Positions 5,853 through 59,791 of a stretch of 64,000 nucleotides of DNA are shown here, one piece after another. Each line of letters begins with the position of its first letter. Positions within the stretch are counted from its first letter, which is position 1. Position numbers and translations under genes: made by a program. The notes beneath the pieces were generated by a model, which was given only the letters and a program-made list of their open reading frames with translations, ran no database searches and had not been told where the DNA came from. Location of the stretch: contig OY282377.1 in NCBI GenBank assembly GCA_958295785.1, forward strand, positions 262,394 through 326,393, written 5' to 3'. This stretch comes from an uncultured Latescibacterota bacterium. GTDB taxonomy: Bacteria; Latescibacterota; UBA2968.

Positions 5853-6047
5853 ATATGTTGTACTGTGTCCGTACGGCATATACCTTGCGTTAATTCTGAT
5901 TAAGGACTCTTTGGTCAGCGGAAGATCATTCTGACCGCAACCGCCATCCTTGAGAATGAAACCCGGCATGATCAACAGTACCACCAGTGAATATATTCGC
6001 ATCTTTCATCTCCTTTCTATGTTGAAGTGAGCAACCTTGACACCTTA

Positions 6048-6973
6048 GAAGCCCTAACATAAAGAAAGTAAGCGTCTGAAACAGATGAGAGAACAGCCGA
6101 TGGAGAGGAACGCCTCATGGATGTCCGCTCTGCGCTCGTCGCGCACCCGCAGTCTGCGGAACTGCCGGAGCCAGGCCAGCGTCCGCTCAACGACCCAGCG
6201 GTACACGCCCAACCCGCTGCCATGCTCTGTACCCCGTCGGGCGATCACCGGCGAGATGTGGCGTGCGCGCAGGGCCTTCCGGTGTGCCCTCGAGTCATAG
6301 GCACGGTCTGCATACAGCCGTTGGGGTCTGCGGCGCGGACGACCGCGTTTGCCTCTGACCGCGGGCACAGCGTCCACCAAGGGCAACAATTGCGTCACAT
6401 CATGCCGGTTCGCCCCAGTCACAATCGCGGCCAGAGGCACCCCGTTGGCATCGGTGATCACATGATGCTTACTCCCGGGCTTGCGGCGGTCTGTGGGATT
6501 GGGGCCGGTTTTTCCCCCCAGCGCCTACCGCACGCAGGGAGGCGCTGTCCACGCAGGCACGAGACCAATCCAGGCCGTCGGCCGCTCGCAGTTTGGACAA
6601 CAGCAGATGATGAAGCCGCTCCCACACGCCTGCTTCATGCCATTCCTTCAGACGACGCCAGCAGGTCATCCTGGAACCACACCCCATCTCTTGGGGCAAC
6701 TGCTCCCATGGGATGCCGCTCTTCAGGACAAATAGAATGCCGGTCAATGCCTTGCGGTCGTCAATGCGCTTCCGTCCGGGGTAGCGGAATCGTCTCGGCT
6801 TGGGAACCGGCAAAAGGGGTTGGACCTTTTCCCAGAGTTCATCGCTCACCAAGGGGTTGGACATCTGTCCCTCCTCGCCCGATAAAGATGCCGGGCATGG
6901 ACGTTGTAAGGGTTGGGCTGAGAAGAAAATCGGCCTCTCACAACTCCATGTCAACCCTTTTTGTTAGGGACTC
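6048..6973 (-). mobile_element. IS5-family (IS427-like) insertion sequence
   Basis: 926 bp with imperfect terminal repeats GAAGCCCTAACA / TGTTAGGGACTC, flanked on both sides by TTA (6045-6047, 6974-6976). A 112-bp derivative that keeps only the two ends lies at 57621-57732. The element sits just upstream of the start of the broken gene at 6002 and may have displaced its promoter. Confidence 0.85.
6054..6864 (-). CDS. IS5-family transposase in two frames
   Basis: ORFA runs from the ATG at 6864 (GAGGAGGG upstream) to 6469. ORFB covers the rest down to 6054 in another frame. The switch lies at a G6A5 run: reading on in the ORFB frame gives KTGPNPTDRRKPGSK, the usual IS427-type junction. Catalytic candidates are the Asp of CVDSASLRAV, the Asp of LYADRAYDS and the Glu of WVVERTLAWLRQ. 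The frame change could be programmed slippage, as in many IS427 elements, or a one-base indel in the homopolymer. The sequence alone does not decide. The combined product is about 270 residues. Confidence 0.8.
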
Positions 6974-56621: not shown

Positions 56622-56650
56622 AGGCAAAAGTTTCGCTGATAGGAGCAATG

Positions 56651-57313
56651 ATGAACACACAAAGTTATGAACTCGGCACGATTGAGGCATCTGAGCAACT
56701 CATTCACGATCTGTATATCGACTTACGCAAAAAAGCCAACCACTGGGCGGCTATCACGCATCAAACGGCTCAAGCGAGGATGGGATATGTTGGACAACAT
56801 CTCGTCAGTGTTGTAACGGGGTATCGAGGGGGGCGTTCAGGGGCCAGAGGTAAAGACCTGATTCTGCCGAATAATGAACATGCAGAAATCAAGACTTGCT
56901 ATCGAGTTGATCAATTGGGGAAATGCAACGACTGCGGTGCGAGAGTCGCGAGTATAGAATTGTCCCGTCCTGAATGTGAATCGAAAAACCTACAACGAAA
57001 TGACGACTCAAAATGGTTAATTGGCATACGCCACGAGGAAGAATTTGCAAGTGTTTTGGAACCCAAATACTACTATCTCGTTCTCTTTGAATTTACAGAT
57101 CTCCATTCTCCCCATACGATACAATCTTCTATATGGCGCGTTGAATCCAAGGCGCCGGGTTTCTCGCTGTGTATGATAGATTACTACAAGAATATACGTC
57201 CAGCTTCGCGTTCAAAGGCCCCGTTCAATCTCTGGCCTTACCAACTGAAATTCGATGTCATGAGACCCTATCTGATATACCGTTCTTTGATTACACTGGG
57301 TGACGAAATTTAA
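56651..57313 (+). CDS. Type II restriction endonuclease, MamI-like
   Basis: 220 residues. The ATG at 56651 is preferred to 56648 because AGGAG lies five bases before it. ARGKDLILPNNEHAEIKTC gives the D...ExK catalytic set of PD-(D/E)XK enzymes. A CNDCGARVAS segment and a later Cys may bind zinc. The overall order (AARMGYVGQHLVSVVTG-like region, then the active site, then WLIGIRHEEEF) matches the MamI family as I recall it, so the target may resemble GATNNNNATC. It overlaps the next gene by 14 bases and faces a DNA methylase at 57733. Confidence 0.65.
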   Translation: MNTQSYELGTIEASEQLIHDLYIDLRKKANHWAAITHQTAQARMGYVGQHLVSVVTGYRGGRSGARGKDLILPNNEHAEIKTCYRVDQLGKCNDCGARVASIELSRPECESKNLQRNDDSKWLIGIRHEEEFASVLEPKYYYLVLFEFTDLHSPHTIQSSIWRVESKAPGFSLCMIDYYKNIRPASRSKAPFNLWPYQLKFDVMRPYLIYRSLITLGDEI

Positions 57314-57566
57314 GACGCTGACCTTTCCTCGCCGGAATGAAGCTCAACTTCACCCACTAAAATCACTACCTGATTACTCTCAGTCCCGGAATTTCACAAA
57401 GAAAAAGATATTGAAGTTCGCGGAATATCAAGGTTTTCAGGTAGAGGGCGCGCAGAGTAAATCAAAGCTATTAGAAGCGATACAAAATTTGTTAGACCTG
57501 GGACAAAGCGATCCCCACATGATTGCAGACAATCTCGCCAAAGCACTCTACTTGGATGACATATGA
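57300..57566 (+). CDS. Small restriction-locus protein (88 aa), possible SAP-like DNA-binding domain
   Basis: Starts at a GTG inside the end of the endonuclease gene, in another frame (coupled translation). KKKILKFAEYQGFQVEGAQ followed by KSKLLEAIQNLL has the spacing of a short helix-extended-helix such as SAP domains. Its stop overlaps the ATG of a third gene that is cut off by the MITE. It may help DNA binding or regulation in the restriction system. Confidence 0.55.
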   Translation: MTKFKTLTFPRRNEAQLHPLKSLPDYSQSRNFTKKKILKFAEYQGFQVEGAQSKSKLLEAIQNLLDLGQSDPHMIADNLAKALYLDDI

Positions 57567-57652
57567 TACCACCATTCCGCATTGCCACCTTTAATCCGCG
57601 AAAAAACAGAACCCTACTTAGAAGCCCTAACATAAAGAAATCAAGCGTCTGA
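57563..57652 (+). pseudogene. Truncated third gene of the restriction operon
   Basis: ATG at 57563 overlaps the previous stop as ATGA, reading MIPPFRIATFNPRKNRTLL before entering the MITE at 57621 and stopping at 57652. No downstream part is found after the MITE, so the gene is lost beyond 19 native codons. Family not recognised. Confidence 0.5.
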
Positions 57653-57732
57653 AACAGATGCGTGAACACCCGCAGGAACGCCTCAAAGTCGGCCTCTCAC
57701 AAATCCATGTCAACGCTTTTTGTTAGGGACTC
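57621..57732 (-). mobile_element. 112-bp MITE-like derivative of the IS5 element at 6048
   Basis: Both ends match the 926-bp element (left: GAAGCCCTAACATAAAGAAA, right: TGTTAGGGACTC) and TTA flanks both sides, but the transposase gene is deleted. It could be moved in trans by the full element. Confidence 0.85.
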
Positions 57733-59676
57733 TTAGGCTGAAAGATCGATGCTTTGAAAAAGGACTTCTTGCTCAAATGCACACTCATTGAGCCTTTGAT
57801 TGAGTTCTGTTTCGAGACGCAAGGCGTTGATGATCTTATCCAATGCCTTTTTCCCCTGAACTTCTGTCGAAGTTGTACACCGCTTCATCAGCGTATCGGG
57901 GATGGGGATATCCAGCAAATCGTCGGCATATAAATGAGCTGTCTGTCCCCTTACCAATCTCTGGATCTGGGCCACAACAGAGGGAAGGCGCAAGTAAGCC
58001 AACAGCGCGTAAGGGTCAATTTTTTCTTTGTTTGGACGCAAGAGCATGACTTCGCCTACGATAGAAGCATTTCCGCCCACCCATTTGGGAATTTTATGCA
58101 CGATATCGACTTTTTTTGCAATGTATATCACGGAATGCGCCGAAGATGTCAGGAGAATATCTCCTTCTTTTACAATCAGATTTTGCTTTGCTCTTTTGGG
58201 GATTTCAGAACAATCTATAAAGTTTCGGTCTCGAGGTTGCCAGTTGATCCCGTTGCCCGTTAGATTTCCCACTTTGACGACAAAGAGGCCATCTGGCGTA
58301 TAATTCTTGCGCGGTGGGGTTTTGCCAGTTGTGGCAAATTCTACAATATCCCGAAGTTTGAATTTGCTCTGTATGGAATTTTCTGCGGTCATCAGATTTT
58401 TCAGATAGGAAAAAGTGGCGTGCTTTGAGACTGTTGGAAGCATTCGGCAAACGCCTCGATTTTTGTTCTCGGCCAGAGATTTTTTTAAGTCTTCTGGCAG
58501 TTTGATCAATTGGTTCTCTGCGCGAAACCGACCCGTAGCATCAAATCCCACATTTGTAACATCGGCGAACGCGATGGTTATGCGATCAGAAGCCTCTGCC
58601 TTGGAAATGAATTTTTTGATAAAGAGGACGATTGTCGATGTTTGCGTGCCAGTCGCAGCAAACGTCTCGGGAGGGAGGGAAACCGCAGCATAGATATAAC
58701 CGAGTTGATCCAAAGCCTTTCGGGCGGTTTCCAAATTTGAGTTCGTCAGCACGCTCTTTGGCAATACGATAGCGAGAATACCGCCGGGCTTGAGGTATTT
58801 GATCGCCTGTTCAATAAAAATCACTTCGCTTTGCTGTCGATTGACGAGGCCCCCCTTTTTTGACTTGCAGGTCTCAAAACCCCGCAGGTCGTAAGAAGCA
58901 TTGTATAACGCAACGCCAAAAGGGGGATTGGTAAATATCACATCGAAATTTTCGGGGCCCAGCCAATTTTCAGGGCAATTGAAATCTGGATACAGAGAAT
59001 CCACGAGTTGGCGATGAAAAGTAGTGCCCGCGAAATGACCCAAATTGAGTTCTGACAAAAGCAGCATCCGGGGATTTTTATCAGTGCCCCAAATCGCAAC
59101 TTTTTTCGATGACGGTTGTTGACTCATAAATTTGAGCGTTTCAATTAAAAAGGTGCCCGAACCGCACGCAGGATCGTAAACAGCATCTTCCGGCCCCGGG
59201 ACGACAAATTCGACCATCATTCTCACGACATCATCAGGCGTGAGATAAATCCCCAAACCGCGGCGGATTTCTGGAGATAAGAACTCGCGCAATGCGGCAC
59301 TCCGCACATCATAAGGTACGCTCGAGAAATTGATCTCCTTAAAGACTTCACAGATCGATAAGAGTGCCGTATCGCTGAGATGAAAACGCGCATCTTTCCA
59401 CAAGTCTTGAAACCACGAATTGAAGGTTTTTACATACTGTGCGAAAAGGGCTTTTATTTGCTCTGCTAAATTTTTGTTTAACGGAGCAAATAATCCATTT
59501 AAGCTAAAATCCGTTGGGTAAGCGAGCTCTGGCCCCGATTCTTCATTGGCCTGTTTGAAAAATAAAAATTTTAGCAATTCATCAAAAGCTTCTTGGGGTT
59601 GTAAACCATCTATATTACGCATAATATCATGCGTGCGTGAATATAGAGAAGCCAGTTTGAACTGATCGGTATTCAC
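57733..59676 (-). CDS. N6-adenine DNA methylase with C-terminal target-recognition domain
   Basis: 647 residues. GTG at 59676 is preferred, with AGGAGG five bases ahead; the ATG one codon upstream is too close. The N-terminal helical domain (residues 1-150) is followed by the SAM site VYDPACGSGTFLIETL and the catalytic NPPFGVAL, as in HsdM-type gamma-class enzymes. From about residue 420, KLRDIVEFATTGKTPPRKNY begins an HsdS-like recognition domain, so modification and specificity are in one chain. It faces the MamI-like nuclease and is its likely partner. The stop codon lies in the TTA duplicated by the MITE. Confidence 0.85.
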   Translation of the reverse strand: MNTDQFKLASLYSRTHDIMRNIDGLQPQEAFDELLKFLFFKQANEESGPELAYPTDFSLNGLFAPLNKNLAEQIKALFAQYVKTFNSWFQDLWKDARFHLSDTALLSICEVFKEINFSSVPYDVRSAALREFLSPEIRRGLGIYLTPDDVVRMMVEFVVPGPEDAVYDPACGSGTFLIETLKFMSQQPSSKKVAIWGTDKNPRMLLLSELNLGHFAGTTFHRQLVDSLYPDFNCPENWLGPENFDVIFTNPPFGVALYNASYDLRGFETCKSKKGGLVNRQQSEVIFIEQAIKYLKPGGILAIVLPKSVLTNSNLETARKALDQLGYIYAAVSLPPETFAATGTQTSTIVLFIKKFISKAEASDRITIAFADVTNVGFDATGRFRAENQLIKLPEDLKKSLAENKNRGVCRMLPTVSKHATFSYLKNLMTAENSIQSKFKLRDIVEFATTGKTPPRKNYTPDGLFVVKVGNLTGNGINWQPRDRNFIDCSEIPKRAKQNLIVKEGDILLTSSAHSVIYIAKKVDIVHKIPKWVGGNASIVGEVMLLRPNKEKIDPYALLAYLRLPSVVAQIQRLVRGQTAHLYADDLLDIPIPDTLMKRCTTSTEVQGKKALDKIINALRLETELNQRLNECAFEQEVLFQSIDLSA

Positions 59677-59791
59677 CATGACCTCCTGTCGGGAAATAAT
59701 TTTAAACCCGAAAAGAATCATTCTGTTTTTATCGTACGGGACGATTTTCTGAGGCGAGCATTTGTTGTTGGCGGAAGAGGCCAACCATCCA

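What the first reader, a model, noticed from the sequence alone, without database searches (positions are those of the whole stretch)
56651..59676. MamI-like restriction locus with a MITE that removed a third gene
A PD-(D/E)XK nuclease, a coupled small protein and a third gene start (57563) form an overlapping series on the plus strand, facing a methylase with built-in specificity domain. A 112-bp deleted IS5 sits right after the third start, and nothing of that gene remains beyond it.
Basis: partly seen in the sequence, partly recalled or inferred. Interest (0 to 1): 0.5.

Follow-up and report, generated by a model that had tools for sequence, protein, structure and literature searches.

The report
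Broken MamI-type restriction gene beside methylase
This is a horizontally acquired two-gene restriction-modification locus whose cutting enzyme is broken into two pieces by mutation, with a small mobile element in the gap beside an apparently intact methylase; no sign of a lost third gene was found, so it looks like an ordinary decaying defence locus.

Summary
The parts are real: a MamI-type nuclease ORF (56648-57313), an 88-aa ORF (57300-57566), an ATG at 57563, a 112-bp IS5-type MITE (57621-57732) and a facing methylase (57733-59679). The three-gene reading is wrong. The nuclease and 'small protein' are consecutive pieces of one restriction enzyme: they match positions 56-264 and 270-353 of one 374-position profile, and 8 of 8 relatives found encode both parts in one ORF of 319-331 aa. 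The third start is an off-frame reading of the enzyme's own tail; the true frame continues past the TGA in register with relatives. The MITE has TTA on both sides, and the joined flanks give both genes ordinary ends, so nothing need have been deleted. In 8 of 8 relatives a convergent methylase follows directly, with no gene between. The site is empty in 10 of 10 congeners. A zinc-ribbon cysteine invariant in 8 of 8 relatives is also lost. Best reading: a decaying restriction-modification locus with a surviving methylase; loss of cutting is inferred.

The parts
56648..57313 (+). N-terminal piece of the MamI-type restriction endonuclease: PD-(D/E)XK core, with one zinc-ribbon Cys replaced by Arg
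   Evidence: PF09567 E 1.4e-18; PADLOC PDLC03588 positions 56-264/374, E 2.8e-112; D69, E79, K81 of L014 kept, C106 of L014 (8 of 8 relatives) is Arg here
57300..57313 (+). frame break: the reading frame of the enzyme changes register here
   Evidence: alignment with 8 uninterrupted relatives: the two ORFs abut without a missing stretch; 0 of 21 control gene comparisons in the window show a frame break
57300..57566 (+). C-terminal piece of the same endonuclease (the 'coupled small protein'), corresponding to the C-terminal helical domain
   Evidence: PDLC03588 positions 270-353/374, E 1.7e-7; aligned to the C-terminal part of 8 relatives; model of the L014 enzyme
57564..57566 (+). in-frame TGA, about 17 residues before the end of the L014 enzyme
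   Evidence: profile match runs through it to position 367/374 with one TGA; aligned to the L014 tail without a gap at the TGA
57563..57620 (+). 'third gene start': off-frame reading of the enzyme's C-terminal codons, not a gene
   Evidence: no gene between endonuclease and methylase in 8 of 8 homologous loci
57618..57620 (+). left TTA, probable target-site duplication
   Evidence: in the 12 copies whose two flanks were printed (the window's own included), 8 have the same three bases on both sides and 4 have TTA left and TAA right
57621..57732 (+). 112-bp MITE, internally deleted IS5-type element, inserted between the ends of the two convergent genes
57733..57735 (.). right TTA, probable target-site duplication, which is also the methylase stop codon on the minus strand
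57733..59679 (-). N6-adenine-type DNA methylase with C-terminal specificity domain, 648 aa, full length
   Evidence: PF02384 E 1.3e-35; PDLC03357 positions 3-607/620, E 9.9e-182, no stop inside; 59, 56 and 47% identity to the partner methylases in L013, L014, L015
56622..59782 (.). approximate extent of the acquired segment between the GH113 gene and the ceramidase-like gene
   Evidence: 10 of 10 same-genus genomes have these two genes adjacent without the segment; edges read by eye

Best explanation
A two-gene, MamI-type (Type II) restriction-modification locus entered this chromosome between two conserved host genes. The endonuclease gene has since decayed: a register change near 57300-57313 splits it into a catalytic core piece and a C-terminal domain piece, a TGA cuts off the last 17 or so residues, and one zinc-ribbon cysteine is gone. 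A 112-bp MITE from a family that has multiplied in this genome inserted at a TTA shared by the ends of the two convergent genes, with no sign of a deletion. The methylase is still full length, so the likely present state is a methylase that marks DNA while cutting is lost. Shown: one ancestral gene, the lesions, the place and flanks of the MITE, empty sites in relatives. Inferred: loss of cutting, activity of the methylase, order of events.
For: Both ORFs hit consecutive parts of one PADLOC profile. 8 of 8 relatives (phage scaffold L012, marked UNVERIFIED in its record; L013 to L019 from Competibacteraceae, Chloracidobacterium, Xenococcaceae, two Pelagibacteraceae, Planctomycetota, Pseudoxanthomonas koreensis) have one ORF of 319-331 aa spanning both. 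The tail past the TGA aligns in register. The zinc-ribbon Cys is invariant in 8 of 8 relatives and Arg here. TTA stands on both sides of the MITE, and the joined flanks read ...REKTEPYLG and a stop. The empty site is seen in 10 of 10 congeners. The locus has 45% GC against 55% for the window. In the 64 genomes of the phylum searched, this one included, the enzyme family matches only here and as a scrap in G049, and the methylase family at E 1e-60 only here. Control: 0 of 21 comparisons of window genes with two congeners show a frame break.
Against: The first piece covers the PvuII-like core of the predicted fold (residues 1-212), so a truncated enzyme could keep some activity. At columns where three relatives agree, the first piece has 8 private changes in 134 and the second 5 in 23 (L013: 4 of 130 and 6 of 24), the methylase 32 in 250, so relaxed selection is not visible. 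The bases beside the element differ (TTA left, TAA right) in 4 of 12 copies examined, so the flanking TTA is not by itself proof of a clean duplication. The register change could be a sequencing error, though the TGA and Cys loss are substitutions. Methylase activity is untested.
Confidence: 0.8

Rival explanations
1. Split but working enzyme: the two ORFs are translated as separate polypeptides by overlap and reassociate, or ribosomes change frame at the junction, so restriction persists.
For: The two ORFs overlap by 14 nt and abut without a missing stretch. The core lies in the first piece, and that piece shows no excess of private changes.
Against: 0 of 8 relatives are split. The second piece also lacks the last 17 or so residues, and the first lacks a zinc-ribbon Cys that is invariant in 8 of 8 relatives.
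Confidence: 0.07
2. Truncated but active nuclease: the 221-aa first piece alone cuts DNA and the rest is dispensable debris.
For: The model of the L014 enzyme puts a PvuII-like core in residues 1-212 (VIA-align Z 9.8, rmsd 3.4, 135 aligned, 1ni0_A); the D, E and K of the presumed catalytic motif are kept.
Against: The C-terminal domain is present in 8 of 8 relatives; the break, at about residue 220 of L014, cuts off the predicted strand 220-224 and all that follows; the zinc-ribbon Cys is lost.
Confidence: 0.06
3. Sequencing or assembly error: the enzyme is intact in the living organism and the frame break is an artefact.
For: A single assembled contig represents the species here; a one-base change of register is a typical long-read error (general knowledge).
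Against: 0 of 21 gene comparisons in the same window show a frame break (the unfiltered scan, which kept shadow ORFs, showed 0 of 50 with G038 and 3 of 58 with G031). The TGA and the Cys to Arg change are substitutions.
Confidence: 0.06
4. One reading: a third gene began at 57563 and was removed by the MITE.
For: An ATG overlapping the TGA, followed by 29 open codons, is there.
Against: 0 of 8 homologous loci have a gene between endonuclease and methylase; TTA on both sides and natural ends of both genes when the flanks are joined; the arrangement is at chance level; the stretch is the enzyme's own tail in another frame.
Confidence: 0.01

Closest known systems
MamI restriction-modification family (PF09567 RE_MamI; PADLOC PDLC03588)
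   Same: Sequence family above Pfam's cut-off; the two pieces together cover most of the PADLOC profile; convergent endonuclease and methylase pair as in the relatives.
   Different: The endonuclease is broken in at least two places; the target of this copy is unknown (MamI itself: GATNN/NNATC, seen only as a reference title in PMC7302621 and PMC11768872).
Solitary methylases next to degraded restriction genes
   Same: Full-length methylase beside a broken cognate nuclease; PMC6471742 (passages) reports from Seshasayee et al. that a number of orphan methylases neighbour degraded REase genes.
   Different: Here it is one acquired locus in one species, with no sign yet that the methylase is kept for another function.
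Bacterial MITEs derived from IS5-family elements
   Same: 112 bp, inverted ends, shares both ends with a 926-bp IS with an IS4/5-family transposase, TTA or TAA beside the element.
   Different: Nothing unusual except copy number: 125 places match the left-end pattern with up to 3 mismatches, and these include full IS copies.

Membership tests
MamI-type Type II restriction endonuclease | sequence match to PF09567 / PDLC03588 | tested here: met
   PF09567 E 1.4e-18; PDLC03588 56-264 and 270-353 of 374 in two ORFs
MamI-type Type II restriction endonuclease | one uninterrupted reading frame, as in relatives | tested here: not met
   relatives 8 of 8 uninterrupted, window broken; hence filed as a broken gene of the family, not as an enzyme
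MamI-type Type II restriction endonuclease | PD-(D/E)XK residues (motif recalled) and PvuII-like core | tested here: met
   D69, E79, K81 of L014 invariant with the window included; model of the L014 enzyme, not of the window piece, matches PvuII, Z 9.8, 12% identity
MamI-type Type II restriction endonuclease | four-cysteine zinc ribbon present in the relatives | tested here: not met
   C92, C95, C106, C109 of L014 invariant in 8 of 8; with the window included C106 drops out
MamI-type Type II restriction endonuclease | cleavage at GATNNNNATC | not testable with these tools
   Indirect look only: the ratio of GATNNNNATC to the reversed control pattern is 11.4 in this genome, 10.9 to 13.7 in 10 congeners, so no clear avoidance (worked out from the counts)
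N6-adenine methylase with built-in specificity domain | N6_Mtase catalytic domain plus C-terminal specificity domain | tested here: met
   PF02384 E 1.3e-35; Methylase_S E 0.0011, below Pfam's cut-off; near full-length PDLC03357 match
MITE of an IS5-type element | short internal-deletion copy with inverted ends, related IS in the same genome | tested here: met
MITE of an IS5-type element | target-site duplication with identical bases on both sides | tested here: inconclusive
   TTA/TTA in the window; identical bases in 8 of 12 copies with both flanks printed, TTA/TAA in 4

The most novel reading that the evidence does not exclude
The break is functional: this lineage makes a MamI-type nuclease from two polypeptides, or through a ribosomal frame change at the overlap, giving a restriction activity that can be tuned or switched off while the methylase stays on.
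Probability: 0.05. Interest if true: 0.4.

Novelty: new member of a known kind. Interest (0 to 1): 0.12.

Why it matters
It removes a claimed third gene from the MamI type and shows how a frame break, an early stop and a MITE landing side by side can look like a three-gene operon with a lost member. It also gives one case of a horizontally gained restriction locus with a broken nuclease while the methylase frame stays whole.

Tried and rejected
Third gene: rejected on homologous loci, flanks of the MITE and chance level. Separate coupled small protein: rejected; it has no Pfam match of its own and matches the C-terminal part of the enzyme profile.

Led nowhere: DNA search of plasmids (no match at E 1e-5), tblastn of plasmids (no match), PDB sequence search (no match at E 1), viral-contig scan (10 stretches matched a pattern, none a relative). 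GATNNNNATC avoidance: the count here (1314) is below that of every one of the 10 congeners (1745-2395), but the reversed control is also the lowest (115 against 127-215), so it says nothing. Private-change counts gave no sign of relaxed selection (made on 4 sequences only: window, L013, L014, L015). The Foldseek search alone gave no match at E 0.001 or better; the PvuII-like reading rests on the VIA-align second look. A SAP-domain row for the C-terminal domain (2rnn, Z 3.2, rmsd 3.4, 61 aligned) is too weak to use. Paper searches: (MamI with restriction endonuclease) listed 8 papers, of which I looked into two and saw MamI only in their reference lists; the other six have unrelated titles and were not opened. 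One search (GATNNNNATC) found 20 papers, 15 listed, none opened. Searches were read as listings, apart from passages of PMC12707154; PMC6471742 was found through its reference list.

Results against the reading: the core is in the first piece and keeps its presumed catalytic residues, so loss of cutting is inferred, not shown. The bases beside the element differ in 4 of 12 copies. In one search three of 58 G031 queries showed frame changes; these were absent after overlapping shadow ORFs were removed (of 67 G038 and 41 G031 ORFs kept, 11 and 10 had a match of 60% identity or more in the window, 12 distinct window stretches, 0 frame breaks; matches under 60% identity were dropped before the count).

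Full report
What was claimed. A MamI-like nuclease, a coupled small protein and a third gene start form a series facing a methylase, and a 112-bp deleted IS5 removed the third gene.

What is there. The ORFs and the element are at the stated places. The 221-aa ORF (56648-57313) matches PF09567 RE_MamI at E 1.4e-18. The 88-aa ORF (57300-57566) has no Pfam match, but both ORFs match one PADLOC profile, PDLC03588 (374 positions), in sequence: 56-264 at E 2.8e-112 and 270-353 at E 1.7e-7. A six-frame search of the genome gives 43-267 and 269-367, the second running through one TGA. So they are two pieces of one restriction enzyme.

Relatives. tblastn in phage records gave one relative (locus L012; the record is marked UNVERIFIED), and the genome collection gave seven, L013 to L019. 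All 8 encode the enzyme in one uninterrupted ORF, 319-331 aa from the chosen start. In the alignment the two window pieces abut without a missing stretch, so the frame changes register there; the frame of the second piece then continues past its TGA with residues that line up, without a gap at the TGA, with the tail of L014, where 17 residues remain. The ATG at 57563 is in another frame of that same tail. Such a start is ordinary: 78 of 500 open stretches of 60 or more aa in the window end in ATGA, and 1148 of 2124 ATGs stay open for 29 or more codons.

A third lesion. The relatives share a four-cysteine zinc ribbon (C92, C95, C106, C109 of L014, invariant in 8 of 8). The window has Arg in place of the third cysteine, and that column is no longer invariant when the window is added. 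D69, E79 and K81, the presumed catalytic residues (motif recalled), are kept.

What the break severs. A model of the L014 enzyme (mean pLDDT 84.1, pTM 0.83, 8 aligned sequences) has a core and a C-terminal helical part (helices from 239 to 319). The VIA-align second look puts PvuII first (1ni0_A, Z 9.8, rmsd 3.4, 135 aligned, 12% identity, model residues 1-212); Foldseek alone had no match at E 0.001 or better. The window's first piece ends at about residue 220 of L014, at the start of the strand 220-224, so the core is nearly whole and the C-terminal domain is on the second piece.

The MITE. It is 57621-57732, 112 bp, with TTA on each side. Positions 1-52 and 65-108 match the two ends of a 926-bp element (L067) at 94 and 95%, whose transposase matches PF13340 and PF01609. 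The left-end pattern with up to 3 mismatches occurs at 125 places in this genome (60 forward, 65 reverse; 0 for the reversed control), full IS copies included. The MITE search matched 0 of 10 congeners, so the family spread after this lineage split off, or was lost elsewhere. In the 12 copies with both flanks printed, the three bases beside the element are the same on both sides in 8 and TTA/TAA in 4, so the flanking TTA is a probable, not a proven, duplication. A second line of evidence is the joined flanks: they read ...REKTEPYLG and a stop in the enzyme's frame, and the right TTA is the methylase stop codon, so both genes reach ends of ordinary length and nothing need have been deleted. The insertion changed only the last couple of codons of an enzyme tail that now lies beyond the TGA.

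The partner gene. The 648-aa methylase is full length: PF02384 E 1.3e-35, Methylase_S E 0.0011 below cut-off, PDLC03357 3-607 of 620, no stop inside. In 3 of 8 relatives (L013, L014, L015) the convergent partner is the same kind (59, 56, 47% identity). In the other 5 (L012, L016, L017, L018, L019) no match to it was found at E 0.001, and the convergent neighbour is a shorter ORF of about 300-370 aa; the 4 of these tested match PF01555 (L019 was not tested). In all 8 the convergent ORF follows the endonuclease directly, with no gene between.

Origin. In 10 of 10 same-genus genomes the GH113 gene and the ceramidase-like gene are adjacent, with no restriction genes between. The locus has 45% GC against 55% in the window. 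The methylase family is found in 1 of 64 genomes of the phylum (this one, E cut-off 1e-60); the enzyme family in 2 of 64, the second being a 22-residue scrap in G049. The simplest reading is that this lineage gained the locus.

Is it an assembly error? Of 21 comparisons of window genes with genes of two congeners (11 with G038, 10 with G031; 12 distinct window stretches; only matches of 60% identity or more kept), 0 showed a frame break. An earlier scan that kept shadow ORFs gave 0 of 50 and 3 of 58. An error at the register change is unlikely but not excluded; the TGA and the lost cysteine are substitutions.

Mechanism. Most likely the locus came in as a working two-gene system and the nuclease has since been lost by mutation, leaving the methylase. 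Loss of cutting is inferred. Private-change counts do not show relaxed selection (first piece 8 of 134 columns, second 5 of 23, methylase 32 of 250), so decay is recent or the first piece still does something. The target is unknown; MamI's GATNN/NNATC (reference title in PMC7302621, passages) shows no clear avoidance in this genome. The general pattern is known: PMC6471742 (passages) cites Seshasayee et al. for orphan methylases next to degraded restriction genes, and Oliveira et al. for this being an uncommon route.

Noticed in passing
own genome, loci L059, L074, L076, L078, L079, L080, L081, L084: A stretch of about 257 bp (82-99% alike where it aligns; only partly so in L081) recurs between a copy of the IS5-type IS, or its left part, and a copy of the MITE. 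I picked these 8 by eye from the 30 loci; it may be a compound mobile unit or a repeat family hit several times.
   Followed up: partly
L011 around 1555-1620 (G049, same class): A 22-residue scrap of a MamI-type enzyme (73% identity to L014); the longer profile match there contains a stop codon: perhaps another decayed copy.
   Followed up: partly
window 6044-6087: A second copy of the MITE left end in the window.
   Followed up: no
L012, L016, L017, L018: The same enzyme family is paired with PF01555-type methylases instead of the large methylase with a specificity domain, convergent in each: partner exchange in the MamI type.
   Followed up: partly
own genome, MITE and IS copies: In 4 of 12 copies with both flanks printed the element has TTA on the left and TAA on the right, unlike a plain 3-bp duplication.
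   Followed up: no
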